From: Corallococcus macrosporus
Lineage (GTDB): Bacteria; Myxococcota; Myxococcia; Myxococcales; Myxococcaceae
Length of the DNA: 64,000 bases
Direction of reading: 5' to 3'
Assembly (NCBI RefSeq): GCF_017302985.1
Contig: NZ_JAFIMU010000007.1
Span: 2,108,001 to 2,172,000, forward strand
In this document: in pieces, positions 10,737 to 44,382 of the stretch
Position numbering within the stretch: the stretch's first letter is position 1
Layout: every line of letters begins with the position of its first letter
Translations under genes and position numbers: made by a program
Notes under the pieces: generated by a model
What the model was told of the DNA's origin: nothing
The model's database searches: none
Seen by the model: only the letters and a program-made list of their open reading frames with translations

Positions 10737-10934
10737 ATGCTGATGGAACTGACGAACGAGGAGTCGCGCGTATTGAAGGACGCCGTGGACTCCTCGCTGC
10801 ACACGCTGCTGGATGAAATCGCCCACGCGGATCAACGCGAGTTCAAGGAGGCGCTGCGCCAGCGCTACGACCGGCTGGCCGCGCTCCAGCGCCGCCTGGA
10901 GCCCATCGTGGAGAGCGAACAGGTCTACGCCTGA
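10737..10934 (+). CDS. Small helical protein, unknown function
   Basis: The 65-aa product is charged and predicted to be almost wholly helical, with Leu/Ala heptads (LKDAVDSSLHTLLDEIA, RYDRLAALQRRLEPI). A strong AGGAGG lies six bases before the ATG. It has no signal peptide. Its stop overlaps the end of the ABC ATPase gene on the other strand by 10 bp. Confidence 0.75.
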   Translation: MLMELTNEESRVLKDAVDSSLHTLLDEIAHADQREFKEALRQRYDRLAALQRRLEPIVESEQVYA

Positions 10935-11947
10935 CCTACCGCGCGGCCCGTCTTCGCGTCGAACCGGCGCAGGAACCGTGCGTCATGCCGCAGCCACACC
11001 GGGTCCCCGCTCGCGGCGCGGAAGTCTCCGGAGGCTCGCGCCACCATGCGCTCGCCGCCGGTCTCCACCGTCACCCAGACCTCCGCGCCCATGGGCTCCA
11101 CCAGGTACACGCGCCCTTCGCGAGCATCCGGCGGACGTGCGCCCTGACCGATTTGGAGATGCTCCGGCCTCAGGCCCAGCACCGCGTCGCCGTCGGACAG
11201 GCCCAGCGTGGACGGCTTCACCAGGTTGATGCGCGGCGAGCCGAAGAAGCCCGCCACGAAGAGGTTCGCGGGTGCGTCGTACAGCTCGCGCGGCGGGGCC
11301 ACCTGCTGCACCTCGCCCTGGCTCATCACCACCACGCGGTCGGACAGCGTCATCGCCTCCGCCTGGTCGTGCGTGACGTAGATGAAGGTGGCCTTGAGCT
11401 GTTCGTGCAGCTTCTTGATTTCGCCGCGCATCTGCGTGCGCAGGGCCGCGTCCAGGTTGGACAGGGGCTCGTCGAAGAGGAACACCTTGGGCCTGCGCAC
11501 CAGTGCGCGTCCCAGGGCCACCCGCTGCCGCTGTCCGCCCGACAGCTCCTTCGGCCGGCGCGACAGGAGCGCCTCCAGGCCCAGCACGCCGGACACCTCG
11601 CGCACGCGCGCGTCGACGTCCTTCGCGTCCATGCCCGCGACCTTCAGCGGGAACGCCAGGTTCCCGGCCACGTCCAGGTGCGGGTAGAGCGCGTAGCTCT
11701 GGAACACCATCGCGATGTCGCGCTCGCGCGGGGACAGGTCGTTCACCAACTGCCCGTCGATGCGCAGCTCACCGCCGGAGAGTTCCTCCAGCCCGGCGAT
11801 GAGGTTCAACGTCGTGGACTTGCCGCATCCGGAAGGGCCCACCAGCGACACGAACTCGCCGTCCGCGATGTCCAGCGTCACGCCCTTCACCGCCGCCACG
11901 CCACCCCGGTACACCTTGCGCACGTCCTGCAGGGACACCGTCGCCAA
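10925..11947 (-). CDS. Sugar-type ABC transporter ATP-binding protein (MalK/UgpC/MsmX family)
   Basis: The 340-aa protein has Walker A (GPSGCGKST), Q-loop (FQSYALYPH), signature (LSGGQRQRVALGRAL), Walker B (VFLFDEPLSNLD) and H-loop (VTHDQAEA), followed by a C-terminal OB-fold regulatory domain. It should energise an importer of sugars or glycerol phosphates. The best start is TTG at 11947, giving MATVSLQDVRKVY, with GGGAGG nine bases upstream; an ATG at 11977 is an alternative. No permease or binding protein is adjacent. The importer at 46550-49514 lacks an ATPase and is a plausible partner. Confidence 0.92.
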   Translation of the reverse strand: MATVSLQDVRKVYRGGVAAVKGVTLDIADGEFVSLVGPSGCGKSTTLNLIAGLEELSGGELRIDGQLVNDLSPRERDIAMVFQSYALYPHLDVAGNLAFPLKVAGMDAKDVDARVREVSGVLGLEALLSRRPKELSGGQRQRVALGRALVRRPKVFLFDEPLSNLDAALRTQMRGEIKKLHEQLKATFIYVTHDQAEAMTLSDRVVVMSQGEVQQVAPPRELYDAPANLFVAGFFGSPRINLVKPSTLGLSDGDAVLGLRPEHLQIGQGARPPDAREGRVYLVEPMGAEVWVTVETGGERMVARASGDFRAASGDPVWLRHDARFLRRFDAKTGRAVGQA

Positions 11948-12019
11948 GGCCGCGCACCTCCCGAAAAGCCCCAGCATCGCCGCTTCCCGCCCCCGCGCGG
12001 CCCCATCCCTCTCCGCCCC

Positions 12020-12069
12020 GTCACATCCGCTACGTGTCGCCAGAGGGTTCGTTACAGGCTCAACAGTTC
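12020..12069 (+). repeat. Upstream-element copy A (imperfect direct repeat)
   Basis: GTCACATCCGCTACGTGTCG followed after seven bases by GTTCGTTACAGGCTCAAC matches the copy at 12398-12457. It sits between the ABC ATPase gene and the DUSAM fragment. Unlike copy B it has no TAGAGT downstream, so it may be a decayed promoter of the DUSAM gene. Confidence 0.6.
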
Positions 12070-12201
12070 CCGAGGCCTGCGGACTCACCGCCTCCGAGGC
12101 CGCCGCCCTCATGGCCGCGGGCATGGGAGCCACCGGTTCGCACGCCGGCTCCAAGACGGAGGGGTACGACGACTCCCACAACGCCCACCTCCCCGAAATG
12201 C

Positions 12202-12387: not shown

Positions 12388-12397
12388 GGCGCCACCC

Positions 12398-12457
12398 GTC
12401 ACATCCCCTACGTGTCGGGTTTTCCAGGCCGGACGGTTTGTTACAGATTCAACGGTC
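12398..12457 (+). repeat. Upstream-element copy B (imperfect direct repeat)
   Basis: GTCACATCCCCTACGTGTCG differs by one base from copy A at 12020, and the second half (GTTTGTTACAGATTCAAC) is also shared. The spacer is 18 bases instead of seven. The repeat ends at the promoter-like sequence of the 12505 gene. Confidence 0.6.
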
Positions 12458-12504: not shown

Positions 12505-13545
12505 ATGCCCTTCCTCTTCCGTGGTCAGAACTTGGACGCTCTCCTGGGCGACCCGCTCACCGCGGCCAACAGCCTGTACGGCATCATGAGCGCGGCGGAG
12601 CCGCAATTCATGGAGGACCTGCGGCTGCACTGGAAGAAGCACATCCGTGAGACGCCCGGAGTCAACGGCACCGCGTGGCGGCCCGCGCTCAAGGCCTTCT
12701 CCGCCATCGAGGGCTACTGGGGCAACTCGCACAGCGACCAGCGCATCGCGAAGGTGCTCTACGGGCCGGGGCACTCGGTGGCCACCCAGGTGGTGACGGG
12801 CGTGGGCGCGGCCGCGCAGTTCCTGCGCGACTTCGAGGCCGCTCGCGACGAGGCCTTCTACGTCTTCTTCCAGGCCACGTCCGTGAACGAGCTGGCGGGC
12901 GTGTCCTTCAAGGCCACGTACTACCACAAGGACGTGTCCTCCCTGTTCGAGCAGCGCCCGCACAGCGCCATCAAGGCCATCGTGTCCCGCCGGGTCATCG
13001 AGACCGCGCAGATCATGCTGCGCATCCTCTACGGCAACATGAACATGGGCTGGGGCAGCCTCTACAGCACGCGCACCCTGTCCACGACGCTGCTGCTGGC
13101 GCAGATGCACAACTCCGCGCTGAGCCACTACCAGTCCCACTACACCGGGCGGCGTTGCTACAACCAGAGCGCCGTCGCGTTCACGCTGCTGACGTTCGCG
13201 TACATCGTCGCGCAGGCGTGGGTGGACAAGGGCTACGAGTACAACGAGCAGCGCTGGTACTACTTCTGGAAGCTGGTGGGCTCGCTGCTGGGCGTGGACT
13301 CGCGCCTCATCGCGGACGACCACGCGGAGGCCGCCACGCTGTGGGACCTCTTCTTCGCGCGCGGCGAGTGCTTCGGTGGAACACCCGCGCCCTACCCCAC
13401 GACCCTGGACGCCCACCGCATCGACCCGGGGCTGCTCGGGGGCTACTCCGTGCAGCCGGAGGCGAACCTGCTCCAGTGGGTGCCCGCATTCGTCGTCACC
13501 CAGCTGCGCAACGTGCCCCGCTGGTACCGCTACATCCGGGGCTGA
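12505..13545 (+). CDS. Uncharacterised protein with weak resemblance to DUF2236/MpaB-type proteins
   Basis: The 346-aa protein is rich in Trp and Tyr and has no signal peptide. Its C-terminal third contains WKLVGSLLGVDSRL followed by an acidic stretch, which resembles the C-terminal helix of DUF2236 (MpaB/rubber-oxygenase-like) proteins. I could not see the rest of that family's signature, so the link is weak. The ATG at 12505 is the first codon after the predicted promoter. Its stop codon (13543-13545) lies inside the left copy of the 14-bp repeat flanking the ATPase/TOPRIM cassette. Confidence 0.8.
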   Translation: MPFLFRGQNLDALLGDPLTAANSLYGIMSAAEPQFMEDLRLHWKKHIRETPGVNGTAWRPALKAFSAIEGYWGNSHSDQRIAKVLYGPGHSVATQVVTGVGAAAQFLRDFEAARDEAFYVFFQATSVNELAGVSFKATYYHKDVSSLFEQRPHSAIKAIVSRRVIETAQIMLRILYGNMNMGWGSLYSTRTLSTTLLLAQMHNSALSHYQSHYTGRRCYNQSAVAFTLLTFAYIVAQAWVDKGYEYNEQRWYYFWKLVGSLLGVDSRLIADDHAEAATLWDLFFARGECFGGTPAPYPTTLDAHRIDPGLLGGYSVQPEANLLQWVPAFVVTQLRNVPRWYRYIRG

Positions 13546-13554
13546 CGCCTCAGC
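13541..13554 (+). repeat. Left 14-bp direct repeat of the inserted cassette
   Basis: GCTGACGCCTCAGC occurs here and, base for base, at 15336-15349. It contains the TGA stop of the upstream gene and is an imperfect dyad (GCTGA/TCAGC). If one mismatch is allowed, the match extends to 18 bases (13541-13558 and 15336-15353). Confidence 0.8.
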
Positions 13555-13585
13555 ACTCGTGCGTGCGCAGGCCAGATGCAGCGAC

Positions 13586-13591
13586 TAGAGT
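13586..13591 (+). promoter_or_regulatory. -10-like element directly before the ATPase gene
   Basis: TAGAGT ends six bases before the ATG at 13598 and no Shine-Dalgarno sequence is present. Together these suggest a leaderless transcript. I see no good -35 hexamer at the usual distance. Confidence 0.35.
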
Positions 13592-13597
13592 CGCGCC

Positions 13598-14737
13598 ATG
13601 CGCATTACCCACCTTCGGCTAAAGAACTGGCGAAACTTCCTTGAGGCCGATGCTCCGCTGGAGCAGCGCGTTTTCCTCGTGGGTCCCAATGCCGCGGGTA
13701 AGTCCAACTTTCTCGATGCCATCCGGTTCTTGCGCGATGTCGCGGATGCACAAGGTGGGCTCCAACGAGCAGTTGCCTCCAGGCGTGGGGTGTCACAGAT
13801 ACGGTCTCTGCATGCGCGCCGGTATCCCAACGTCATGCTCGAAGTCGAAGTCGATCTTGGCGACGGCGAAAGCTGGAACTACCGCCTGGAGTTCACCCAG
13901 GACAACCAGCGCCGCCCCATTGTCAAAACAGAAGCTGTGACCTGCGGTTCCAAAACACTTCTGGAACGACCCAACAGTGACGACAAGAAAGACCCTGCTC
14001 TCCTGACTCAAACACACCTGGAGCAGGTGAATACCAATCGTGAGTTCCGCGAACTCGCGGACTTCTTCTCCAAGATTCGATACCTCCATCTCGTTCCCCA
14101 ACTTGTTCGAGAACCAGACCGCTCCACGGGGAGGGTAAACGATCCGTTTGGTGGAGACTTCCTGGAGCAACTGGCCCGCGTACCATCCAAGACACTCAAC
14201 TCTCGCCTGAAACGCATCACCAGTGCACTTCGGGTCGCGGTTCCGCAACTCCAAGAACTGGACCTGAAGCGCGACGAACGGGGCGTGCCTCACCTCCAAG
14301 GCAAGTACAAGCACTGGCGTCCCAATGCCGGTTGGCAGAACGAAACGCAACTTTCGGATGGAACCCTCAGGCTTCTTGGTCTGCTTTGGGCCTTTGTGGA
14401 TGGAACAGCCCCCTTGCTACTGGAGGAGCCTGAACTTTCGCTTCACACTGCGGTCGTTCGGCATATCCCTCAAATGATGGCCAGGGTGAGCCGCAAGAAC
14501 GACCGGCAAGTTATTGTCAGTACTCACAGCGCAGATCTCTTGGGGGATGAGGGGATCGGCGGTGAAGAGGTACTCGTGCTGAAACCCCTCAAGGAGGGGA
14601 CGCAAGTGGATGTCGCTAAATCCGATGACACCATTCGCGCGCTTCTTGAAAAAGGTTCTTCCGTCGCTGAAGCTGTGATTCCCAGAACAGAGCCAAGTGA
14701 CTCCAGACAACTTGCCTTCTTTGGTGAGGCGCTGTGA
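13598..14737 (+). CDS. AAA-family ATPase (AAA15/AAA21, RecF/OLD-like)
   Basis: The 379-aa protein is an SMC/ABC-type ATPase of the kind found in OLD nucleases and related defence systems. Walker A is GPNAAGKS at residues 29-36, an ABC signature-like LSDGT is at 252-256, Walker B is LLLEEPEL at 273-280, and an STHSADLL H-loop follows. It has no nuclease domain of its own. The next gene, overlapping by four bases (GTGA), encodes a TOPRIM-like protein, so the pair looks like a split OLD-type enzyme. Base composition is much lower in G+C than the neighbours, indicating recent acquisition. A role in phage defence is inferred from architecture only. Confidence 0.88.
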   Translation: MRITHLRLKNWRNFLEADAPLEQRVFLVGPNAAGKSNFLDAIRFLRDVADAQGGLQRAVASRRGVSQIRSLHARRYPNVMLEVEVDLGDGESWNYRLEFTQDNQRRPIVKTEAVTCGSKTLLERPNSDDKKDPALLTQTHLEQVNTNREFRELADFFSKIRYLHLVPQLVREPDRSTGRVNDPFGGDFLEQLARVPSKTLNSRLKRITSALRVAVPQLQELDLKRDERGVPHLQGKYKHWRPNAGWQNETQLSDGTLRLLGLLWAFVDGTAPLLLEEPELSLHTAVVRHIPQMMARVSRKNDRQVIVSTHSADLLGDEGIGGEEVLVLKPLKEGTQVDVAKSDDTIRALLEKGSSVAEAVIPRTEPSDSRQLAFFGEAL

Positions 14738-15321
14738 CTCCAGTGACAGTTGCCGTGGAAGGCCCTACTGACACGGCCATTGTCACGAGGCTCTTACGTC
14801 ATACAGGCCTCCCCCTTGGCTTTGTTTATGCAACGGGTGGAAAATCGAAGCTCGATGCAAGACTCGTCGGCTTCAATCATGCCGCCAGGAATGAGCCCTG
14901 GTTTGTTCTTCGCGATTTGGATCAAGATGCCTCCTGCGCGCCCGAACTCATCAAGAGCCTGCTTCCTGCGCCCAATGCGCGAATGCGGTTGCGGATCGCA
15001 GTCCATCAAGGCGAAAGCTGGCTCCTTGCGGATGCTGAGCGCATCGCGCGCTTTCTAGGGGTTCCAGTCAGTTCAATCCCTTCGGCCCCCGATACGCTCT
15101 CCAACGCAAAACAGACATTAATCAACTTGGCGCGGCGCTCGCGTTCTCGTGAGGTCCGAGAAGCGCTGGTTCCATCCGAGAACTCGACTGCGACAGTAGG
15201 TAAGCAATACACATCTACGATCGCGAGTTTCACCACAGAGGATTGGCGCCCAGGTATAGCTGCTACCCGGAGCGATAGCCTCGCCCGATGCATCCGTGCG
15301 CTCCAGACCCTGAAGCGATAA
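14734..15321 (+). CDS. TOPRIM-like (DUF4276-type) partner of the ATPase
   Basis: This 195-aa protein shows the acidic pattern of a TOPRIM fold: Glu9 in VAVEGPTD, then Asp61 and Asp63 in VLRDLDQD. A conserved HQGESWLLAD segment (residues 91-100) and a C-terminal arrangement like that of DUF4276 proteins follow. TOPRIM domains bind magnesium and cut or join nucleic acid. Translation starts with GTG inside the stop region of the ATPase gene, so the two products are coupled and probably form a complex. Possible activities are DNA nicking, tRNA cleavage or phage-triggered toxicity; the sequence does not choose. It shares the low G+C of its partner. Confidence 0.8.
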   Translation: MTPVTVAVEGPTDTAIVTRLLRHTGLPLGFVYATGGKSKLDARLVGFNHAARNEPWFVLRDLDQDASCAPELIKSLLPAPNARMRLRIAVHQGESWLLADAERIARFLGVPVSSIPSAPDTLSNAKQTLINLARRSRSREVREALVPSENSTATVGKQYTSTIASFTTEDWRPGIAATRSDSLARCIRALQTLKR

Positions 15322-15335
15322 GTACCTGCTGGGCC

Positions 15336-15349
15336 GCTGACGCCTCAGC
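15336..15349 (+). repeat. Right 14-bp direct repeat of the inserted cassette
   Basis: This is an exact copy of the repeat at 13541-13554. It contains the reverse complement of the stop codon of the DUF427 gene (15345-15347), just as the left copy contains the stop of the 12505-13545 gene. Confidence 0.8.
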
Positions 15350-15629
15350 GCTCCACCGTGACGCCCTTCCAGAAGGCCACGTAGCCGCGGATGTTGGCCG
15401 CGGCCGGCTTGGGCTCCGGGTAGAACCAGGCGGCGTCCGCGTTGGTCTTCCCGTCCACCTCCACGGAGTAGTAGCTCGCCTCGCCCTTCCACGGGCAGTG
15501 GGTGTGCGTGGCGCTGGGCTTGAAGTGCTCGCGCACCAGGCTGTCGGGAGGGAAATAGACATTGCCCTCCACCGTCTCAAAGGCGTCGCTCTTCGCGAGC
15601 ACGACGCCGTTCCATTTCGCCACGGGCAT
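15345..15629 (-). CDS. DUF427 family protein
   Basis: The 94-aa protein matches the DUF427 pattern along its whole length: an N-terminal AKWNG segment, a YFP strand, HTHCPWKGEASYYSVEV in the middle and a C-terminal GYVAFW strand. It is a small all-beta fold of unknown function, common in soil bacteria. The ATG at 15629 is the only good start. It lies 35 bases downstream of the alpha/beta-hydrolase gene on the same strand, so the two are probably co-transcribed. Confidence 0.88.
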   Translation of the reverse strand: MPVAKWNGVVLAKSDAFETVEGNVYFPPDSLVREHFKPSATHTHCPWKGEASYYSVEVDGKTNADAAWFYPEPKPAAANIRGYVAFWKGVTVER

Positions 15630-15664
15630 GGGAAAGCCTCCGGATGCGTGTGTGTAACCGCGTG

Positions 15665-16492
15665 TCAGCCCGCGTGCGCGGCCTGGTTGGATGCGTGCTG
15701 CGTGAGGAAGGGGGCGAGCTCCGCGTTGACCAGCGCCGGCTCCTCCACCGTGGACGAGTGGCCCCCGCGCGACAGGCGCACCAGCTTGGAGCCCGGGATG
15801 AGCGAGTGGATCCGCTCCGCCTTCGCGGGCACCGTGGCGCGGTCCTCTTCCCCCACGATGACGAGCGTGGGCGTGCGGATGCGCGGCAGCTCGTCCGCGA
15901 CGGGCTTGCGTTGGATGACGCCGTTGACGGCGCGGTAGATGTCGCGGCGGTTGCCCTTCAGGCGCGCGCGCCACAGCGCCCGCTCCTCCGCGCGGCCCGG
16001 GTCGGTGAGGAACGACGTGCCGAACATGATGCGCATCACCGGCGCGGTGACGGGCGCCAGGCCCACGTAGCGCGCGACGAGGTTGAGCGCGGTGTAGCGC
16101 GGCACGTTGGTGGGGGGCTCGGGGTCCGCGGAGGTCTCCAGCAGCACCAGCGAGCGCAGCAGGTCCGGCCGGCGCGCCGCGAGCCGCATGCCCACGAAGC
16201 CGCCCATGGACAGGCCCACGAAGTGGACCGGGCCCACGCGCATGGACTCCAGGAACGCCACCGCGTCCGCGTACACCGTCTCCATGTCGATGACGGACTC
16301 GGGCGGCACGTCGCTCTGGCCCTGACCCCGGTGGTCGTACGCGATGCAGCGGAAGCGCCCGCGCAGGGCCTCCACCTGCGGGTCGAACAGCCGGGTGCTC
16401 CACAGAAGGCCGTGGCTGAAGACGACCACGTCTCCGGGGCCTTCGGTGTCCTCGTAATACAGCCGGGTTCCATTCACGGACCGCATGGGCAT
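15665..16492 (-). CDS. Alpha/beta-fold hydrolase
   Basis: The 275-aa enzyme has the standard elements of the family: an oxyanion HG segment (FSHGLL), the nucleophile elbow GLSMGG, a late acid in GEEDRA and the His in RGGHSS near the C-terminus. The AYDHRGQGQSD segment is typical of haloperoxidase-like or 3-oxoadipate-lactonase-like esterases, but the substrate cannot be read from the sequence. The ATG at 16492 has GGAGG eight bases upstream; an ATG at 16486 is also possible. Confidence 0.9.
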   Translation of the reverse strand: MPMRSVNGTRLYYEDTEGPGDVVVFSHGLLWSTRLFDPQVEALRGRFRCIAYDHRGQGQSDVPPESVIDMETVYADAVAFLESMRVGPVHFVGLSMGGFVGMRLAARRPDLLRSLVLLETSADPEPPTNVPRYTALNLVARYVGLAPVTAPVMRIMFGTSFLTDPGRAEERALWRARLKGNRRDIYRAVNGVIQRKPVADELPRIRTPTLVIVGEEDRATVPAKAERIHSLIPGSKLVRLSRGGHSSTVEEPALVNAELAPFLTQHASNQAAHAG

Positions 16493-16632
16493 GGGCACGG
16501 CCTCCCTTCGCTCAGGGGGGACCCTAATCCAGGGCTCGCCCGGACCGCAGCCCTCCCTGGGAGGTCGTTGTCCACTGGAGGAGACGGGCTTGCCCGGAGC
16601 GCCGCTTGTGCCGCCCGGCGCTTGGGAGGAGC

Positions 16633-18702
16633 ATGGGCGGCACCTTCCGGATGCGCTCCTCTCGCCCTGTCCTTGTCGCCCTCGCGGTGGTGGTTCTCGC
16701 GGCGGGCCTGTTCTTCTTCCTGCGTTCCCCGGCCACGACCGCGCCCCCCGCGCCGGTGGCCCAGGCGCCCTCGCCGCCCGTGGACGCGGGGAGCGTCGCC
16801 GCGCCCGTGCCGGTGAAGACGGTGGAGGCGCCGCCCGCGAAACCGGCGAATCACTTCGTGGGCTCGCAGGTGTGCGCGGACTGCCACGAGGAGCAGCACA
16901 CCGGCTGGAAGCACGACTGGCACGCGCGGGCGCTGTCTCCCGCGGCGAAGCCGTACGTGGTGGGCACGTTCAGCGCGAACACGCACTTCCAGGGCGAGTC
17001 CAGCGAGGCGTGGATGCGCCGCGACGGAAGCCAGTACCTCATGCGCACCAAGGGCGCGGACGGGAACCTGGGCGAGTGGCCGGTGCAGTGGGTGGTGGGC
17101 GGCAAGCGGATGCAGGACCCCATCACGCTCTTGCCGGACGGCCGCTGGCAGGTGATGCCGGTGTACTTCCACGTCACGGGCAAGGGCGAGTGGGTGGACT
17201 ACTCGGAGAAGAAGCAGGGGGCGCTGTCACCGGACCACCCGTTCTTCTGGACGAACTTCCGCCGCAGCGCGCAGCACGCGTGCCTGGACTGCCACGTGAC
17301 GGGGCTGGACGCGCGCTATGACCGGGCGGCGCACCAGTGGGAGACGAAGTTCGCGGACGCGGGCGTCGCGTGCGAGTCCTGCCACGGGCCCGGCGGACGG
17401 CACGCGGAGTCGCAGCTGCCGGCGGACATCGTCCAGCCGGCGAAGCTGCCGAAGGACGAGTCCTTCGCGGTGTGCGCGCAGTGCCACGGGCCGCGCCGCA
17501 CGCTGTTCCCCATGCTGGACGCGAAGCACCGCTTCCAGCCCGGCCAGCGCTACGACGCGAGCTATCAGCCCATGGTGCTGCTGGTGGGCAACGACCGCTC
17601 CGGGGACTTCTTCCCGGACGGGCGTCCCAGCACCTCCAGCTTCGAGTACCAGGCGCTCATCCAGTCGAAGTGCCACCTGCAGGGCGGGGCCACGTGCCTG
17701 ACGTGCCACACGGCGCCGCACGACGCGAGCGCGCCCAACGAGGTGAAGAAGCAGAAGCCGGTGGCGGCGCGCACGACGGTGAACGCGACGACGTGCCAGG
17801 GCTGTCACCCGGACGTGATGGCGCAGGGGGAGAAGCACACGCACCACAAGGCGGTGGCGGCGCAGGACTGCCTGGCGTGTCACATGCCGCCGGTGGTGTC
17901 GGGCGTGCTGGACCACTTCGCGGACCACGCGCTGGACGTGCCGGTGCCGCAGAACACGGCGCGGCACGACGTGCCCAACGCGTGCAACACCTGCCACGCG
18001 AAGGAGACGCCGGACGCGATGCAGGCCTCGCTAGTGAAGTGGTGGCCGAAGGCGGAGGCGCGGCAGCAGCGGCGCCTGCGGCTGGCGGACGCGTTCGCCG
18101 AGAAGACGGCCGCGCAGAGCCGGGGAGCGCTGGAGGCGGTGCTGGCGGACACGACGGAGGCGGGCACGCTGCGGGGCGCGGCGGCGAGGTTCCTGGCGCG
18201 CCGGTTCAAGCACGACGCGGTGCCGGCGCTGCGGACGGCGTTGAAGGGCACGACGGACAGCACGTTGCGCTCGGACATCATCGACGGGCTGGGCGCGGCG
18301 AACGCGCGCGAGGCGACGGAGGACCTGGTGCCGCTGCTCCATGACCCCTCGCTGTGGGTGCGGCAGGGCGCGGCGCTGACGCTGGCGGCGTTCGGAGACA
18401 CGCGCGCGATGCCGGCGCTGCAGGCCCTGGCCACGGAGCCGGAGACGCGCGGGCTGGTGCAGCCGCACGTGATGCTGGGCCAATTGGCCATGCGCAAGCG
18501 CGACGTCGTCACGGCGACGCGCGAGTTCGAGCAGGCCCTGGACCTGCAGCCCTACAACGCGGACGTGCTGGTGCGCCTGGCGGACCTGTACGTGGTGCAG
18601 GGCAACCCACAGAAGGGCCGCGACCGGCTGGAGGAAGCGCTCCGGTTCGACCCGCAGAACAAGTTCGCGAAGCAGCGCCTGGGCATGCTGCCGGCGCAGT
18701 GA
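16633..18702 (+). CDS. Membrane-anchored octahaem cytochrome c with HEAT and TPR repeats
   Basis: The 689-aa protein starts with an uncleaved-looking signal anchor and a Pro/Ala linker. Eight CxxCH haem-binding motifs follow (CADCH, CLDCH, CESCH, CAQCH, CLTCH, CQGCH, CLACH, CNTCH). The C-terminal third has no haem sites but shows HEAT-like helical repeats and a TPR-like end (DLQPYNADVLVRLADLYVVQGN). The haem part resembles the cytochrome c554/NapC-NrfA-related group of multihaem proteins that move electrons in the periplasm. The ATG at 16633 has GGAGG three bases away, which is close; an ATG at 16651 is possible. The next gene starts two bases after the stop. Confidence 0.88.
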   Translation: MGGTFRMRSSRPVLVALAVVVLAAGLFFFLRSPATTAPPAPVAQAPSPPVDAGSVAAPVPVKTVEAPPAKPANHFVGSQVCADCHEEQHTGWKHDWHARALSPAAKPYVVGTFSANTHFQGESSEAWMRRDGSQYLMRTKGADGNLGEWPVQWVVGGKRMQDPITLLPDGRWQVMPVYFHVTGKGEWVDYSEKKQGALSPDHPFFWTNFRRSAQHACLDCHVTGLDARYDRAAHQWETKFADAGVACESCHGPGGRHAESQLPADIVQPAKLPKDESFAVCAQCHGPRRTLFPMLDAKHRFQPGQRYDASYQPMVLLVGNDRSGDFFPDGRPSTSSFEYQALIQSKCHLQGGATCLTCHTAPHDASAPNEVKKQKPVAARTTVNATTCQGCHPDVMAQGEKHTHHKAVAAQDCLACHMPPVVSGVLDHFADHALDVPVPQNTARHDVPNACNTCHAKETPDAMQASLVKWWPKAEARQQRRLRLADAFAEKTAAQSRGALEAVLADTTEAGTLRGAAARFLARRFKHDAVPALRTALKGTTDSTLRSDIIDGLGAANAREATEDLVPLLHDPSLWVRQGAALTLAAFGDTRAMPALQALATEPETRGLVQPHVMLGQLAMRKRDVVTATREFEQALDLQPYNADVLVRLADLYVVQGNPQKGRDRLEEALRFDPQNKFAKQRLGMLPAQ

Positions 18703-35996: not shown

Positions 35997-38900
35997 TCAC
36001 CCTGCCGTCCCCTGTTCGGCCAGGGCCCGCGCCAGGTCCTCGCGCGCCCCCAGCCGGGTGAAGTCCTCCACCGCCCGCCGCAGCAGCCCCGCGCGCTCCG
36101 GGTCCTCCGGGGGCAGGTGCCGCGCCCACTCCAGCCGCGCGTGCGCCGCCTCGTAGGGCATGCCCCGCGTCTCCGACACGGCGATGCAGCGCTGCCACGC
36201 GCGCAGCGCCTTGGGGTGCTTGCCCGCGAGCCACGCCTCGCAGCCGCGCCACAGCCACGCGGCAGGCTCGCCGAAGGGGAACACCCGCGCGAAGTCCTCC
36301 ACCGCCCGGAGCGCCGTCCGCGCGCTGTGCGTGAGCGCCTGCAGGCCCGGCCCGGGCGTCTCGCGCGCCCACAGCGTGAGCAGCACCTCCGCCACCGCCG
36401 TCGCCCCGAAGTAGACGAAGTGCGCCACCGGCTTGCCCGCCGACAGCCGCACCAGCGCCTTCTCCGCCGCCGCGCGAGCGCCCGCCGTGTCGCCCTCGCG
36501 CAGGCACAGCAGCGCGAGCGTGCCGTCCACGATGATGCGGTCGGTGGCGCCGCCGTGCGCCTCCGTCCACGCGAGCGCCGGCTCCAGCGCCGCGCGGGCG
36601 CGTGCGTGCTCGCCCAGCCGCAGCAGCATGTAGGCCCGGTAGTGCTGGGCCCAGTGCCGCGTCTGCTCCGAGCCCCGGCGCACCGCGGACGCCTCCAGCC
36701 AGTCCATCAGCGGCAGGCCCCGCGCGAACTGGCCCCGGTACATGGCGGACACGGTGAGCAGCGCGCGGCACTCCTCCGCCAGCCGCAGGTCCCCCAGCGA
36801 GTCCACGATGGCCGTCGCCCGCGCCAGCCAGGTCTCCACGTCCTGCCAGCGCGCCTGGTACACCGCGCACACCGCGTTGCGGTTGAGCACGTAGGCCAGG
36901 TCCACCGGGCGGCCCACGCGCTCCGCCACGTCCTGCGCCCGCTTTACCCACGCGTCCGCCACGCGGTGCACCGGCACCGTGCCCGCCACCACCGCCATCA
37001 CCGTGTAGCCGCGCGCCAGCTCCGGCGTGGGCCCCGCGGGCTCGCACAGGTTGAGCATGCGCAGGCCGCTCCAGAGCACCGGCACCGCTTCCTGCGCGTA
37101 GATGAACGCGTCCGTCAGCCGCATGAGCAGCCGGCCCGCCACGCGCCGCGCCTCGCGACGCCGCGTGGAGTCATCCACGTACGCGTCCGGCCGGGCGCTC
37201 TGCGCGAGCCGCGACAGCACCTGCCCCAGCGTGCCCAGCACCCACGCCACGCGCGACGTGGGCACCCGCCAGCCGAAGTGCGCGAGCGCGGCCTCCGCGT
37301 GTCCCCGGAAGGCCTCCAGGTCACCCAACTGGAAGCGGGCCTCCGCCAGCAGCGCCTCCACGCGGCCCTGCTCCAGCGGCGTGGCCCGGGGCGCGACCGT
37401 CAGCGCCCGCGTGAGCAGCGGCAGCGCTTCCCGGCACGCGCCCACCGCCAGCGCCTCCTCGCCAGCGATCCGCGCGTGGTGCGCCTCGCGAGCGCGCTCC
37501 CCGGCCTGCCCCCAGTGATACGACAGCGCCGCCGCGTGGCCCGTGGGGTGCGCCGCCTCCAGCGCCTCCGCCACGCGCCGGTGGAGGGCGGGCCGCGCCG
37601 CCGGGGACAGGTCCTCCAGCAGCCGCTCCCGCAGCTTGTCGTGCGCGAAGCGCCAGCGGCCGTCGCCCACGTCCAGCACCGCCGCCGCCGCGCAGTCGGT
37701 GAGCCACGCCTCCACGTCCACGTCGGGCGCGGCGCGCTCCAGCACCGCCAGGTCCAGCTCCCGGCCCAGCAGCGCCGCCAGGTCCAGCAGCCCCCGCGCC
37801 TCCTTCGGCACCTTCTCCAGGCGGCGCTGCACCAGCGCGCGCATGCCGCCCGCCCACACGCGCTGGGGCAGCTCGACGGCACCCAGCCGGTCCAGACCTC
37901 CCGCGTCCTCCGCCAGCGCGCGCACCACCTCCACGAGGAGGAAGGGGTTGCCCTCGGACTCGCGGCGCAGCAGCTCCACCACGTCGGGCCGGCGGCCGAT
38001 GGCGCCCAGCATGGACTCTCCCAGCTGGGCGATCTCCTCCGAGTTCAGCCGGTGCAGCCGCAGCATGCGGGCGCCGGACAGGCGCTCGGGGAGCTGCGGG
38101 GACTCGTCGTCGCGGAAGCTGGCCAGCAGGAGCAGCGGCAGCCCCGCCGCCCTCGCCGCGAGCTGCGCGAGCAGTTGGAGGGATTCCGCGTGCGCCTGGT
38201 GCAGGTCCTCCAGGATGACCACGGTGGGCTGCGCCAGCCGGGCGAAGAGGTCCTCCACCGTCTGGTGCAGGCGCAGCTGCGCCATGTCCGCGTCCAGCTC
38301 CGGGGCGGCGGGCACCTCGCGGCCCAGCAGCGACTCCAGGTCCGGCACCAGCGGCCGGAGCACGCGCGCCTCGCGGTCGGACAGCTCCGTGAGCATGGGC
38401 AGCCAGCGCAGCACCGCGCGCCACTCCTGGTACGGCACGCCGCCGGTGTCCACCGCCTGGCCGCGCAGCACCACCGCGCCGCGCACCAGCGCCAGCGAGC
38501 GCACCTCCTCCAGGAGGCGCGACTTGCCCACGCCGCTCTCCCCGCCGATGAGCCACGCGGCGCCCTGCCCCGCGAGCGCCGCGTCGAGCACGTCCGTCAG
38601 GTGCTCGCGCTCCTTCACGCGGCCCACGAAGCGCGCGGACTGGAGGAAGCTCTCGCGCGTGGCGGCGGACTCGGCGGGCCGGGGCTGACCCACGGCGGCG
38701 CACAGCGCGGCGATGACGGCCTCCGCGTCGCGCGGCCTGCGGTGGGCCTCCGGCGCCACCAGTTGCTCCAGCAGGGCCTTGAGCTCGGGCGGGAAGCCCG
38801 GCGTCGCGAACACCTGGCCCGCGTGCGGCAGCCGGCCGAAGAACATCTGGCACGCCATGGCGCCGAAGCCGAACAGGTCCGTCAGCTCCGAAGGGGGCTG

Positions 38901-39545
38901 GTCCTCGAAGAGCTCCGGGGCCAGGTAGCCCGGCGTGCCCGCGGGCTGCGCGCGACGGCCCTGCTGGTCTCGGCCCACGGCCAGGCCGAAGTCCAGCACC
39001 TTCACCTGGCCGCGCACCACCAGCACGTTCCCGGGCTTGAGGTCGCGGTGGATGATGCCGCGCCGGTGCAGGTACGCGAGCGCCTGGAGCGTCTGGATGA
39101 GCAGCCCCACCTGCGTCATCAGGGGCGCGTCCGAGCCCGCCTCCACCAGCGTGCGCGCGTCCTCCAGGAGGTCCATGGCCAGGTAGGGCCGGCCCTCCGC
39201 GTCGAACCCGTAGTCGAGCACGCGGATGACGTTCGGGTGGCGCAGCGACACCAGCGTCTGGAACTCATGGGCCAAGGACAGCGCCATGCCCTGCGTGGCG
39301 AAGGCGGAAGGGGTGCCCCGGCCCGGGCGCCGCGCCAGGTCCGCCACCGTGCGGTGCAGCCGCTTGAGCGCCACCAGACCGGACAGCCCGTCCTGCGCGC
39401 GCCACACGGTTCCCGCGCCCCCGCGCCCCAGCAGGTCGAGGACGCGGTAGCGGCGCCCCACGACCTCCGGATCCGTGCCCGGAGACGTGTCGGCGTCCGG
39501 AACGTCCGTCCGGAGGGAAGTCTGACAGGAAGGGGGGTGAGACAT
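35997..39545 (-). CDS. Giant Ser/Thr kinase fused to AAA ATPase and TPR-like domain
   Basis: In this 1182-aa protein residues 30-290 are a Hanks kinase (Lys61, HRD at 166-168, Asn173, DFG at 185-187). A predicted AAA/STAND ATPase follows, with Walker A GESGVGKS at 335-342 and a VVILEDLHQAH Walker B. The last 500 residues are helical repeats typical of TPR-type partner-binding regions. This PknK/SpkC-like layout integrates signals through the ATPase and passes them on by phosphorylation. Only the kinase targets are missing from the picture. The ATG at 39545 has a GGGGAG-type site upstream. Confidence 0.93.
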   Translation of the reverse strand: MSHPPSCQTSLRTDVPDADTSPGTDPEVVGRRYRVLDLLGRGGAGTVWRAQDGLSGLVALKRLHRTVADLARRPGRGTPSAFATQGMALSLAHEFQTLVSLRHPNVIRVLDYGFDAEGRPYLAMDLLEDARTLVEAGSDAPLMTQVGLLIQTLQALAYLHRRGIIHRDLKPGNVLVVRGQVKVLDFGLAVGRDQQGRRAQPAGTPGYLAPELFEDQPPSELTDLFGFGAMACQMFFGRLPHAGQVFATPGFPPELKALLEQLVAPEAHRRPRDAEAVIAALCAAVGQPRPAESAATRESFLQSARFVGRVKEREHLTDVLDAALAGQGAAWLIGGESGVGKSRLLEEVRSLALVRGAVVLRGQAVDTGGVPYQEWRAVLRWLPMLTELSDREARVLRPLVPDLESLLGREVPAAPELDADMAQLRLHQTVEDLFARLAQPTVVILEDLHQAHAESLQLLAQLAARAAGLPLLLLASFRDDESPQLPERLSGARMLRLHRLNSEEIAQLGESMLGAIGRRPDVVELLRRESEGNPFLLVEVVRALAEDAGGLDRLGAVELPQRVWAGGMRALVQRRLEKVPKEARGLLDLAALLGRELDLAVLERAAPDVDVEAWLTDCAAAAVLDVGDGRWRFAHDKLRERLLEDLSPAARPALHRRVAEALEAAHPTGHAAALSYHWGQAGERAREAHHARIAGEEALAVGACREALPLLTRALTVAPRATPLEQGRVEALLAEARFQLGDLEAFRGHAEAALAHFGWRVPTSRVAWVLGTLGQVLSRLAQSARPDAYVDDSTRRREARRVAGRLLMRLTDAFIYAQEAVPVLWSGLRMLNLCEPAGPTPELARGYTVMAVVAGTVPVHRVADAWVKRAQDVAERVGRPVDLAYVLNRNAVCAVYQARWQDVETWLARATAIVDSLGDLRLAEECRALLTVSAMYRGQFARGLPLMDWLEASAVRRGSEQTRHWAQHYRAYMLLRLGEHARARAALEPALAWTEAHGGATDRIIVDGTLALLCLREGDTAGARAAAEKALVRLSAGKPVAHFVYFGATAVAEVLLTLWARETPGPGLQALTHSARTALRAVEDFARVFPFGEPAAWLWRGCEAWLAGKHPKALRAWQRCIAVSETRGMPYEAAHARLEWARHLPPEDPERAGLLRRAVEDFTRLGAREDLARALAEQGTAG

Positions 39546-41163: not shown

Positions 41164-41634
41164 TCAGGCCTCGTCGTCGGGGAGAAGCGTGCGGAGCAGC
41201 TCGTCGTCGGGACCGAGCGGGCGCCAGCCGGGGGGCGGCGGATGGGCGAGGAGTGCGTCGCTGGCCTGGCTGACCCGTTGCTCATGGGTGAAGGGAGTGA
41301 AACCGGACCAGGATCCGAGGACCAGGGCGACCTCCATGCGGGACTCATCATCCAGCACGGGCGGCCAGCCGTTGGGCAGCCCCTCGGACAGCTCACGGAC
41401 GAACTGACTGCGCACCAGCCGGGTGAGCCGGTGGGATTTTTCGGCCTCCTCGACCAGCCCCTGGAACACCTGCACTCCCGCGATGTCCCCCTTGCCCAGC
41501 GCGTTAGCCAGCTCGACCAACGTCGCCGTGGGACGTGCCTCCGCGAAGGCGGTCAGGGAGTCGTAACCCAACTCGCGGACCCGCTCATACATCCGCGCCG
41601 GCCAATTGCCACGCCAGGGATGATCTTCGTTCAT
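41164..41634 (-). CDS. Putative immunity protein for the SitA-like toxin
   Basis: The 156-aa acidic protein has no signal peptide and is predicted helical (ELGYDSLTAFAEA, VELANALGKGDI). It resembles no family that I can name. Its ATG overlaps the toxin stop (ATGA), and small acidic cytoplasmic proteins coupled in this way behind SitA-type toxins are their cognate immunity (SitI) proteins. The assignment rests on position only. Confidence 0.6.
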   Translation of the reverse strand: MNEDHPWRGNWPARMYERVRELGYDSLTAFAEARPTATLVELANALGKGDIAGVQVFQGLVEEAEKSHRLTRLVRSQFVRELSEGLPNGWPPVLDDESRMEVALVLGSWSGFTPFTHEQRVSQASDALLAHPPPPGWRPLGPDDELLRTLLPDDEA

Positions 41635-43034
41635 CGCCCACTCCAGGGTGTGAAATTCGCGGGGACGCTATAGCGCTCCATCTCCCTTGCGACGAGCTTC
41701 AGGATCGCATTCCTCGTCAACCTCCGACCTGCCGCCGTCTCGGCATCGCGCAACGAGCGCATGATCATCCGATTCCATTCGTCAGGCCACATGCGTCCCA
41801 GGCGCCAGTCGCCTCCCCCGTGAATTGCCTCATGGTGGGCCTGTTCCAGCCGGACACAGAACTGGTCGATGTCCATGTCTCCCTTGAAGCCGCGCTGCTC
41901 GAACCACTCGCGGTGCTCTCGCGGCAGGACGTGATGCTTGGGCGCATCGGACATGCCTGCTCCAGCCTTGCCGGTGACGTGCATGGCTCGAACCTCGGGA
42001 CTGTCTCCCAGCGCATCACGTACGCCTTTGGGGAGGTCCCGAGGTCCTTGTGCCATCATGACCTGTCCGCCCTGAATGAGGACCGCCGCGCTGGCGGCAG
42101 GGACGGAGATGACGCCCGCCTGCACGAGCCTGCGCATCATCTCCACCCACTCGGCGGAAACCACCATCCGCGAGCCCACCACGACTCCACCCGAGCTCAT
42201 CACGAGGCCCGCGCCAAGCGTCGCGGGAGCAGCGGGCGGCACCCGCGGCAGCGACATCTTCATCGTGGAGATCATCGTCACCATCTCCACCGCCCGCATC
42301 GCCGCGATGATCTGCCCGCCGAGCTTCATGGTTGCCCGGGTCTCCTGGTGGAGTGTGTCGAACTCACGGGTCAGCTTCCCCATCAGCTCGGGCATCGTGG
42401 TCGCCGCCGCCTCCACCCGCTCCGGGTCCAGGGATGCGAGCTCCGTCAGCGTGGGCTCCATCAACCCCTGCACACGCCGAAGGTCGACGAAGAGCTTCTC
42501 GACGCTGCACATCGGGCAGTAGCGGATCACGGCGTCCGCGAGGTGCAGGAAGTCCACCCAGGTGGCCAGCAGCAGCGTCCCGAATTGAGCCGCCTGAAGC
42601 TTCGGCCCGGTCATGCGCAGGAGCCCCAGCTCCATGCCCGTGTCGCTGACTTCCGAAGCCGCTCCTGCCAGCGCAGTGGCACTCCCGAGCGAACCACGAA
42701 GCCACGTCACCTGCGTGGAGCCATGGTCCAGGTAGCGCGTGAACACGCCATTGAGGCCCCATCCTCCGAGCGTCGGAGGACGGGCCGCCAGCTTGGAGAA
42801 CGCGGCCTCGACGCCGCCCAGCGAGCCCTTCACGTCCGCGATGCCCGCGAGCACTGCCTCACGCGTTGGTGAGGCATCGCTTTCCCGCGTGCCCTGCCGG
42901 CGCAGCCGCTGCTCCGGCCCGGAGAAGGCGGGCGTCCCCATGGGCGTGTAGCCCAGGGTCCTCGGATGCGGCGCGGAGGCACATCCCGTGGCCAGCACCA
43001 TCAAGACCAGCACAACCGTCCCACTTCGCACCAT
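41631..43034 (-). CDS. SitA-like lipoprotein toxin (TIGR02269/DUF2380-type)
   Basis: The 467-aa protein starts with a lipobox signal (LATGC). The long middle part has hydrophobic segments (residues about 200-300) and a C-terminal domain contains KHHVLPREHREWF (His367-His368), then AHHEAIHGGGDW and MWPDEWNRMI. That His/Trp pattern is typical of the DUF2380/AHH-like HNH nuclease domains on myxobacterial SitA lipoprotein toxins, which pass between cells by TraA-mediated outer-membrane exchange. The overlapping downstream gene would then be the immunity gene. The ATG at 43034 opens the signal peptide. The nuclease activity is inferred. Confidence 0.75.
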   Translation of the reverse strand: MVRSGTVVLVLMVLATGCASAPHPRTLGYTPMGTPAFSGPEQRLRRQGTRESDASPTREAVLAGIADVKGSLGGVEAAFSKLAARPPTLGGWGLNGVFTRYLDHGSTQVTWLRGSLGSATALAGAASEVSDTGMELGLLRMTGPKLQAAQFGTLLLATWVDFLHLADAVIRYCPMCSVEKLFVDLRRVQGLMEPTLTELASLDPERVEAAATTMPELMGKLTREFDTLHQETRATMKLGGQIIAAMRAVEMVTMISTMKMSLPRVPPAAPATLGAGLVMSSGGVVVGSRMVVSAEWVEMMRRLVQAGVISVPAASAAVLIQGGQVMMAQGPRDLPKGVRDALGDSPEVRAMHVTGKAGAGMSDAPKHHVLPREHREWFEQRGFKGDMDIDQFCVRLEQAHHEAIHGGGDWRLGRMWPDEWNRMIMRSLRDAETAAGRRLTRNAILKLVAREMERYSVPANFTPWSGR

Positions 43035-43059
43035 CACGAGCCCCCTGCCGTCCCACTGT

Positions 43060-44382
43060 TCAATCCGTCTCCCCCAGCTCGAAGGCGGACGTGCCGGTGT
43101 GGTGCTTGCGCTTCGTGAGCTGGTGCTCCTCACGCAGCTGGTTCTCGTAGAAGGGCAGGTGCTCCGCGGTGCGCTGCTTGCGCAGCGCGCGGATGGTCTC
43201 GTGCTCCGTGGTGTTGCTGTAGCCGTGCTTCGTGTGCTCGCGCGCGTAGGCCTGGGGCTCCAGCACCATCCGCGTCGGGTAGCGGTTCTGCAGGACGTGG
43301 ATGAGCTCGTGCCCGTACACGATGAACGCCGGCGCGGGGATGGGGTGCTGCTCTCGGGAGTAGTTGCGCTGCGTGCTGTCACGCAGCCCGGAGCGCAGGC
43401 TGAGCCTGGAGCCTCGGCCGGAGGCCTTGCCCGCGAGCCCCGGCGCCGGTTCGCTCAACAGGTAGTCCTCGCCGTGGCCGTCCTCGTCGTACCAGCTGAG
43501 CTCCACCTCCAGCTCCCCGATGCGCTTCCCCACGGCATCGCGCCGCGTGCCCAGCTCCGCGTAGGGCTTCGACGACGTCTCCAGACGCTTGCGCAGCTCG
43601 CCCCAGGACTCGCTGCCCTGCCGCGCGGACTCCTCCATGCGCGTCAGCTCCTCGCTCATCCCTTCGTACTCGTCCTTGAGGCGCTGAAATTCCTCCGACG
43701 TCGCCGTCAGGCGCTGCTTGTTCACCACCACCTTCTGCCGGAAGTTGGCGGACGGCGTGAACGCCTGGGTCAGCACCAGCGTCACCGGCCACTGCGGATC
43801 CTCGCGCGTCTCGCGGAGGATCCACCGCATCAGCTCGCGGCCATGCGGACGCGACAGCAGCCGGGCGTGGATGGCGCGCACCTCGCGAAGGCCGCGCGCG
43901 TACTGCGCGCCGGTGGGCAGCTTCACCGCGCCCGTGCCCTTCCGCAGCGCGTCCCAGTCCGCGTCCAGCTGCTGCCGGGCCGCGCTCCCCAGCGTCGCGC
44001 GGTCCGGCGTGTAGAGCAGCAGGTTCTTCGTGTGGACGTAGTCCACCAGCTCGATGTGCTTCTCCTGGATCTCCACCGCCAGCCGCATCAACAGCAGGCG
44101 CGAGGCCTTGGAGCCCGCCAGCCGCTCGCGCTCCAGGTCGAACAGCCGGTACAGCAGGTGCTCCGCCGTATCGAGCGCCTTGAGCCGCGCGTCCACCCAC
44201 GCCTGCTTGCCGGTGAAGTAGTACGTGGCCTTGCCGCCCCAGCCACTCCAGTCCGCATGGAACGCATCGAGCGCGGCGCAGAACGGCCGGATGAACTCAT
44301 CCAGCCGCGACACGATGGGCAGCAGCCCCCGGGGCTCCAGGCCCAGGTCCGTCTTGAAGTCCGCCGACGTACTCAACGCCAT
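43060..44382 (-). CDS. Zinc metallopeptidase-like protein (HExxH, possibly M91-type)
   Basis: The 440-aa protein is mainly helical and charged, with possible coiled coil around residues 215-270. HELIH at residues 358-362, inside VYGHELIHVLQ, is a zinc-protease motif of the gluzincin kind. The context resembles M91/NleD-like effector peptidases, which have a similar GHELIH, but the third ligand cannot be fixed. There is no signal peptide. The start at 44382 has GGGAG five bases upstream. It lies 25 bases before the SitA-like toxin, in the same orientation, so it may be part of the toxin locus. Confidence 0.7.
   Translation of the reverse strand: MALSTSADFKTDLGLEPRGLLPIVSRLDEFIRPFCAALDAFHADWSGWGGKATYYFTGKQAWVDARLKALDTAEHLLYRLFDLERERLAGSKASRLLLMRLAVEIQEKHIELVDYVHTKNLLLYTPDRATLGSAARQQLDADWDALRKGTGAVKLPTGAQYARGLREVRAIHARLLSRPHGRELMRWILRETREDPQWPVTLVLTQAFTPSANFRQKVVVNKQRLTATSEEFQRLKDEYEGMSEELTRMEESARQGSESWGELRKRLETSSKPYAELGTRRDAVGKRIGELEVELSWYDEDGHGEDYLLSEPAPGLAGKASGRGSRLSLRSGLRDSTQRNYSREQHPIPAPAFIVYGHELIHVLQNRYPTRMVLEPQAYAREHTKHGYSNTTEHETIRALRKQRTAEHLPFYENQLREEHQLTKRKHHTGTSAFELGETD

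What the first reader, a model, noticed from the sequence alone, without database searches (positions are those of the whole stretch)
13541..15349. Candidate split OLD-type defence system inserted between exact 14-bp repeats
An AAA ATPase gene and an overlapping TOPRIM-like gene, clearly lower in G+C than their surroundings, are bounded by an identical GCTGACGCCTCAGC at 13541 and 15336. Each repeat copy contains a stop codon of one flanking gene. Removing the 1781 bp between the repeats plus one repeat copy would rejoin two neatly convergent genes (stops four bases apart), so the cassette looks like a precise recent insertion. ATPase plus TOPRIM pairs such as OLD and PARIS act in phage defence. 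There is no integrase or transposase, so the mode of insertion is open.
Basis: partly seen in the sequence, partly recalled or inferred. Interest (0 to 1): 0.85.

Follow-up and report, generated by a model that had tools for sequence, protein, structure and literature searches.

The report
Two-gene defence cassette swapped between relatives
A soil bacterium carries a two-gene ATPase-nuclease pair of a known candidate anti-phage type, and the neighbouring DNA suggests it arrived by recombination with a related species' version of the same chromosomal site rather than by a jumping element.

Summary
In detail: the pair lies between two identical 14-mers, found nowhere else in the 9.8 Mb genome, in a low-GC patch between convergent genes. 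The pair is HEC-01, already in PADLOC as a candidate defence system. A is an OLD/GajA/Rad50-like ATPase. B is a separate TOPRIM-fold protein (DUF4276 type) whose best solved structural matches are OLD TOPRIM domains and PARIS AriB. Of 80 relatives of B, 78 have A directly upstream as a separate gene; the other two contigs begin at B.

The "precise insertion between target repeats" reading is not supported. Seven of 16 Corallococcus genomes have the empty junction with one copy. In two others the pair occupies the same slot; B was found nowhere else in those 16 genomes. Here the left neighbour is a mosaic: its body matches its own clade, its last ~32 bases resemble C. llansteffanensis. Before the right repeat sits a 16-base remnant of the clade's own gene end. 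The repeats are therefore two versions of one native stop-codon junction, and the cassette probably came in by recombination through a flanking core gene. Defence activity is untested.

The parts
12505..13545 (+). MPAB/Lcp oxygenase-like gene. Body of clade I ancestry, at least to 13485; from about 13514 (last ~32 nt) of clade II (C. llansteffanensis-like) ancestry
   Evidence: Pfam PF09995 E 3.3e-6; diagnostic sites 98:7 (own:other clade) before and 2:10 after the best breakpoint, Fisher p 1.3e-8; with the end gap collapsed p 4.3e-7 and 0 of 300 permutations; positions
13541..13554 (+). Left 14-bp copy: MPAB stop plus junction, in the stretch that aligns with the C. llansteffanensis MPAB-tail-to-A region
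   Evidence: extends to 25 nt at 84% identity with the right copy
13581..13594 (.). GCGACTAGAGTCGC inverted repeat 3 nt before the start of A; possible promoter element or operator (untested)
   Evidence: identical in G024, one difference in G021
13598..14737 (+). Gene A, HEC-01A: ABC/OLD-type ATPase, sensor/regulator (inferred)
   Evidence: PDLC04180 E 3.8e-163; AAA_21 E 4.1e-36; profile matches GajA 7e-15, OLD 8.5e-11, AriA 6e-7; model pLDDT 92.9, Rad50/SMC/PtuA heads Z about 19-22
14734..15321 (+). Gene B, HEC-01B: separate TOPRIM-fold protein of DUF4276 type, nuclease effector (inferred)
   Evidence: PDLC04194 E 2.7e-70; invariant E9, D61 and nearly invariant D63 in 60 rows; model pLDDT 90.3, OLD C-terminal domains Z 9.2-8.6, AriB 8.4
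15320..15335 (+). Remnant of a clade I MPAB 3' end (AAGTACCTGCTGGGCC); its first two bases are also the last two of B's stop codon
   Evidence: 16/16 identical to G017, 15/16 to G016, G018, G029, 13 and 12 of 16 to G028 and G027, at the homologous place before the stop; random window 16-mers reaching 15: 0 of 4000 draws, draws at 12.5-15.4 kb skipped
15336..15349 (+). Right 14-bp copy: resident MPAB-stop/DUF427-stop junction
   Evidence: G019, nearest genome in the combined tree, ends CGCCTCAGCGCTCC at the same place
15345..15632 (-). DUF427 gene, fixed right flank of the slot, present in all 16 genus genomes
   Evidence: PF04248 E 2.5e-34; 16 of 16

Best explanation
The cassette is an HEC-01 pair, a split OLD-like anti-phage system. 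A (ATPase) is expected to bind and restrain B. On sensing a phage product or DNA structure it would release or activate B, a two-metal TOPRIM nuclease that cuts nucleic acid (host or phage), stopping infection or killing the cell, as AriA/AriB of PARIS do. The cassette sits in a permissive slot between a MalK-like ABC gene and DUF427. It entered this lineage by recombination with DNA from a C. llansteffanensis-like relative that already carried MPAB-HEC-01. One exchange lay in the 3' end of MPAB. The other end joined at the stop of B, leaving the resident MPAB tail and its stop junction behind. This explains the repeats. Shown: family, gene order, conserved catalytic pattern, predicted fold, mosaic MPAB, tail remnant, empty and occupied relatives. 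Inferred: defence activity, A-restrains-B, the substrate, direction and route of transfer.
For: Family: A PDLC04180 E 3.8e-163, B PDLC04194 E 2.7e-70; all 60 B rows given match HEC-01B. Two-gene unit: 78 of 80 loci have A directly upstream of B on the same strand, in all 78 with a stop between (five A cut by the contig end); the other 2 contigs begin at B. Fold of B: top six matches are OLD TOPRIM domains and AriB. Active-site pattern E9/D61/D63; Walker A, signature, Walker B conserved in A. PARIS mechanism from PMC12409363 (passages). Transfer: empty MPAB-DUF427 junction in 7 of 16 genus genomes, neither MPAB nor pair in 5, pair in 3, unresolved 1. G000 lies in clade I. MPAB breakpoint. The 161 bases across the left junction align end to end (76%) with G021 only; five clade I genomes match only the first 33-34 bases (G017 none), the clade II empties G022 and G026 match through the junction (to base 79), and G024 matches bases 76-161. 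Tail remnant. Third-position identity of A and B between G000 and G021/G024 is 45-54%, against 76-81% in the hydrolase gene and 76% in MPAB (G021).
Against: No phage assay exists. In this window the pair stands alone: the genes beside it have ordinary Pfam domains. Among 106 neighbours in other loci at least about 10 gave strong PADLOC hits (25 of 75 families shown) and I ran no control. DUF427's last third is mixed: 3 of the last 5 diagnostic sites are clade II-like, one of them shared with G019, so the right breakpoint is not settled. All 14 bases match between the copies although spacers in the six clade I empties are 1-2 nt, which favours some conversion between copies. The tree is unrooted; rpoB alone groups G019 with G020 (support 0.75), not with G000. 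GC3 differs so much between cassettes that third-position comparisons are biased. The mirror history (two-tail state ancestral, others lost the pair by deletion between tails) is not excluded.
Confidence: 0.68

Rival explanations
1. True precise insertion: the pair entered a single GCTGACGCCTCAGC junction and duplicated it (target-site duplication by an unknown element or by a circle recombining at the 14-mer).
For: 14 identical bases on both sides, extending to 25 nt at 84%; empty junction in relatives.
Against: Ancestry changes upstream of the left repeat inside MPAB; an MPAB tail remnant sits before the right repeat; the MPAB-tail-to-A stretch is shared with G021; the insertion point in G024 is different, with a 5-base CGGGC on both sides; no integrase or transposase domain among the five flanking genes examined with Pfam.
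Confidence: 0.12
2. Old resident: the pair was in the genus ancestor at this slot, possibly with two MPAB tails, and was lost many times, in clade I by deletion between the duplicated tails.
For: All three pairs found in the genus lie in the same slot; deletion between tails would give the observed empty junctions; about 45 bases upstream of A are similar in all three.
Against: Needs independent losses in both clades, including all eight other clade I genomes, and a clade II-like MPAB tail in G000 alone of clade I; cassettes differ more at third positions than flanking genes; GC3 of G000's cassette is far below that of G021 and G024.
Confidence: 0.2
3. The pair is not an anti-phage system but an OLD-like housekeeping or repair module (as Cran1 in Sulfolobales, PMC12796447).
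For: OLD-family proteins can have other roles (PMC12796447: start of abstract in the listing, passages); the pair stands alone here.
Against: Patchy presence (3 of 16 in the genus, 13 of 195 in the phylum), foreign GC, PADLOC candidate status, neighbours in other loci include type III MTase, GajB, CARF and DRT proteins, one each (no control).
Confidence: 0.15

Closest known systems
HEC-01 (PADLOC-DB 2.0.0, Hma-embedded candidate)
   Same: Both proteins match the HEC-01A and HEC-01B models over full length; same gene order in relatives.
   Different: Nothing in architecture; I found no printed experimental test of HEC-01 in the held library (searches; one paper merely lists HEC-01 as a detected system, PMC12724379, passage).
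PARIS (AriA/AriB, OLD class 4)
   Same: Separate ABC-ATPase and TOPRIM genes; fold of B matches AriB, Z 8.4; A profile matches AriA.
   Different: B is DUF4276-type (57 of 60 rows) and shorter (195 aa against about 305 in 8ux9/8v46); A is 379 aa against 464.
OLD classes 1-2 (TsOLD, GajA)
   Same: A profile matches GajA and OLD best among solved sequences; B folds like their TOPRIM domain.
   Different: Here two separate proteins, and no helicase gene among the flanking genes examined.
MADS Mad3, AbiL AbiLi
   Same: Same ATPase superfamily: 75-78 bits.
   Different: Far below the Mad3 cut-off of 420 bits; flanking genes are not MADS genes.
Homology-facilitated illegitimate recombination (PMC3240628, start of abstract in listing)
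   Same: One homologous end (MPAB) and one end with at most a few shared bases.
   Different: Here inferred from one mosaic, not observed; route into the cell unknown.

Membership tests
HEC-01 | HEC-01A and HEC-01B proteins encoded side by side | tested here: met
   E 3.8e-163 and 2.7e-70, genes overlap by 4 bases. PADLOC's own system rule was not seen.
HEC-01 | Anti-phage activity | not testable with these tools
   No assay; HEC-06 is reported active, HEC-01 not mentioned in the passages seen (PMC12988326).
OLD superfamily (works like) | ABC ATPase plus TOPRIM with conserved Glu and DxD | tested here: met
   Walker A GPNAAGKSN, signature LSDGT, LLLEEPE; E9, D61, D63; fold matches. Motif names recalled.
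OLD classes 1-3 | ATPase and TOPRIM in one protein (PMC10568477, passages) | tested here: not met
   Separate genes here and in all 78 loci where both are seen.
PARIS (class 4) | AriB-type (DUF4435, recalled) TOPRIM partner | tested here: not met
   0 of 60 B rows match DUF4435 at E 0.01; 57 match DUF4276.
PARIS (class 4) | ATPase assembly sequesters TOPRIM nuclease until triggered | not testable with these tools
   No complex prediction or assay.
MADS | Mad3 above its curated cut-off | tested here: not met
   77.5 bits against 420.
Integrase- or transposase-borne element with target duplication | Repeats mark the edges of the foreign DNA | tested here: not met
   Ancestry change lies outside the left repeat; a resident tail remnant lies between B and the right repeat.

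The most novel reading that the evidence does not exclude
The slot between the ABC gene and DUF427 is a recombination port without any mobile-element machinery. The same two-gene defence cassette has entered it more than once in Corallococcus (different junctions in G024 and in G021/G000) and is traded between species by homologous exchange through flanking core genes, leaving duplicated stop-codon junctions as scars.
Probability: 0.42. Interest if true: 0.6.

Novelty: new member of a known kind. Interest (0 to 1): 0.42.

Why it matters
How chromosomal defence genes move is poorly understood (stated in the start of the abstract of PMC12829572, search listing). This locus gives a readable scar: a mosaic gene end, a leftover tail and two stop junctions, with empty and occupied relatives to compare. 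It also warns that short direct repeats around a foreign cassette need not be target-site duplications. The pair itself is a compact, widespread split OLD system, for which I found no printed test in the held library, and whose substrate could be assayed directly.

Tried and rejected
Target-site duplication: rejected as the simplest reading because ancestry changes outside the left repeat and a resident tail lies before the right one. Phage or plasmid carriage: B has no match in 50,697 phage records (A was not searched there). In 72,556 plasmid records A matches 95, all under 60% identity and none covering 80% of the query, so only generic ATPases are seen (B was not searched there). One distant relative of B (29%) was confirmed in viral contigs, on a 5.4 kb contig. 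Donor search: among 96 family genomes no other match to the left junction is as long as G021's, 76% over 161 bases. A profile search of B against solved-structure sequences gave nothing; only the fold comparison connects it. Foldseek's own list for B had no match at E 0.001; the OLD/AriB result comes from the VIA-align second look, whose note says Z under 8 may mean only a common arrangement. Defence neighbourhood: 206 ORFs of at least 150 aa were collected from 40 loci, 106 of them picked by me were scanned, without a control, so I give it little weight. PADLOC on 7 other window proteins gave a subtilase-type and a kinase-type match only. Cassette site patterns between G000, G021, G024, G037 were conflicting, so no cassette tree is claimed. 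The GC3 survey of window genes kept only ORFs above 85% GC3 by my own filter, so it is not an unbiased background.

Literature: 'HEC-01' with 'PADLOC' 0 papers; 'HEC-01' whole word 5 papers, one of which lists it as a system detected in Desulfovibrio piger (passage), the other four judged unrelated by title; 'DUF4276' 0 papers; PMC10855318 lists HEC under unknown mechanism (passage); PMC8565338 does not contain 'HEC'. The source that describes the HEC candidates was not seen.
Full report
What is there. Between them lie A (13598-14737) and B (14734-15321), overlapping by four bases. The patch is 54-60% GC against 64-75% outside; GC3 is 60.5% and 57.1% against 94-96% for three flanking genes. 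Flanks are a MalK-like ABC gene (10928-12133, -), an MPAB/Lcp oxygenase-like gene (12505-13545, +), DUF427 (15345-15632, -) and an alpha/beta hydrolase (15665-16498, -), then a multi-haem cytochrome-like gene (16633-18702, +).

What the pair is. A matches PADLOC HEC-01A (E 3.8e-163) and B HEC-01B (E 2.7e-70). HEC means Hma-embedded candidate; several HECs, HEC-06 among them, are reported active (PMC12988326, passages). I saw no test of HEC-01. A profile of 69 A proteins finds GajA (7e-15), OLD (8.5e-11), PtuA (6e-8) and AriA (6e-7) among solved chains. The model of A (pLDDT 92.9) is an SMC/Rad50/PtuA-type head (Foldseek 1e-14 to PtuA; Z about 19-22 in the 50 rows shown). B has an invariant E9 and D61 and nearly invariant D63 over 60 rows. 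Its model (pLDDT 90.3) aligns best to OLD C-terminal TOPRIM regions (6nk8 Z 9.2, 3.8 A over 160 residues; 6njv 8.7; 6njw and 6njx 8.6), then PARIS AriB (8ux9 Z 8.4; 8v46 7.8), an uncharacterised Pyrococcus protein (2p62, 7.8), GajA (7.3) and TsOLD (7.2). Unrelated Rossmann-like folds follow at 7.0 and below, so the margin is modest, but the acidic pattern agrees. Pfam sees DUF4276 in 57 of 60 B rows; for the window's own B the score, 19.7 bits, is under the curated cut-off of 30.2.

A scan of one genome per species gave 272 confirmed relatives of B, of which the best 80 were kept. In 78 of these 80, A lies just upstream on the same strand with a stop codon between the two, five of the A genes being cut by the contig end; the other two contigs begin at B. 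They come from many phyla and include an archaeal Methanosaeta bin. The pair is thus a stable two-gene unit.

The slot in relatives. The genus is Corallococcus: contig G021:C637 is letter for letter NZ_RAWB01000453.1 of C. llansteffanensis CA051B. Of 16 genus genomes, B is found in three, G000, G021 and G024, each time next to DUF427. Seven have MPAB directly convergent with DUF427 and no pair (G016, G017, G018, G022, G027, G028, G029; G022's MPAB carries an internal stop and a deletion). Five have neither (G019, G020, G025, G026 contig C236, G030). G023 is cut at DUF427. G026 has a second DUF427 contig with an MPAB fragment and no pair, perhaps contamination. Empty MPAB-DUF427 junctions read TGA, 1-4 bases, TCAGC: one copy of what G000 has twice.

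The scar. An unrooted tree of rpoB, the hydrolase and DUF427 splits the genus in two with full support: G000 with G019 (0.998) in clade I, G021 and G024 in clade II. rpoB alone keeps the split but groups G019 with G020 (0.75) (G028 had no rpoB hit). At 123 sites where six clade I MPAB genes agree and G021 differs, G000 follows clade I 98:7 before and 2:10 after the best breakpoint (the rest match neither) (p 1.3e-8; with the end gap collapsed 4.3e-7, 0 of 300 permutations reach it). The change lies between 13485 and 13514, 27-56 bases before the left repeat. Across the left junction (13480-13640) G000 aligns end to end with G021 only (76%). Five clade I genomes match only the first 33-34 bases and G017 not at all; the clade II empties G022 and G026 match through the junction to base 79; G024 matches bases 76-161. 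To the right, B's stop runs straight into AAGTACCTGCTGGGCC, identical to the MPAB end of G017, 15/16 to three others and 12-13/16 to two, at the homologous place, followed by the junction. So there are two MPAB ends, one of each clade, each with its own stop junction. G019 shows CGCCTCAGCGCTCC at its DUF427 end, which makes the right copy likely resident. G024 has the pair at a different point of the slot, with CGGGC on both sides compared with G026.

How it got there. The simplest account is import of an MPAB-tail-plus-pair fragment from a clade II-like donor, homologous on the left, joined at B's stop on the right. Homology-facilitated illegitimate recombination is a known route of this form (PMC3240628, start of abstract in listing). 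Against full certainty: the right breakpoint is blurred (3 of the last 5 diagnostic sites in DUF427 are clade II-like), the four spacer bases agree between copies, and an ancestral two-tail state with repeated loss remains possible. Cassettes differ at third positions (45-54% identity of G000 with G021/G024) more than flanking genes (76-81%), which suggests they did not simply descend with the species, though the GC3 shift biases this measure.

How it works. By analogy with PARIS, where an AriA hexamer holds AriB until a phage protein releases it and AriB then cleaves tRNA (PMC12409363, passages), A is taken as sensor and B as nuclease. Class 4 OLD is described by split genes (PMC10568477, PMC12796447, passages). 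HEC-01 fits that layout but has a different TOPRIM partner, so I file it under HEC-01 and say only that it works like class 4.

Verdict. Real feature, known candidate system, and an informative recombination scar in place of the claimed precise insertion.

Noticed in passing
window 13581-13594: Inverted repeat GCGACTAGAGTCGC three bases before the start of A, kept in G024 and with one difference in G021; TAGAGT could be a -10 element of a leaderless message.
   Followed up: partly
window 12017-12039 and 12395-12417: A 23-base direct repeat (96%) upstream of MPAB; G020, which lacks MPAB, keeps CCCGTCACATCCCCTAC close before its DUF427 end.
   Followed up: partly
L048 (G022:C803) MPAB: MPAB is broken by an internal stop and a deletion, and G026 contig C375 has only fragments: MPAB is itself a patchy, partly decaying passenger of the slot (found in 9 of 16 genus genomes at E 1e-40).
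   Followed up: partly
window 41631-43382: A 583-aa ORF with lower GC3 (79%) than its surroundings, with a DUF2380 lipoprotein match just over the cut-off.
   Followed up: partly
window 36000-39545: Large protein whose N-terminal region (about residues 25-300) matches PADLOC PD-T4-6 and mad6 models; probably an ordinary myxobacterial Ser/Thr kinase rather than defence (recalled, not tested).
   Followed up: no
L072 (G165:C318): An HEC-01 pair in another family of the phylum with A matched in two frames and one stop reported in the B match (may be its own end), possibly decaying.
   Followed up: no
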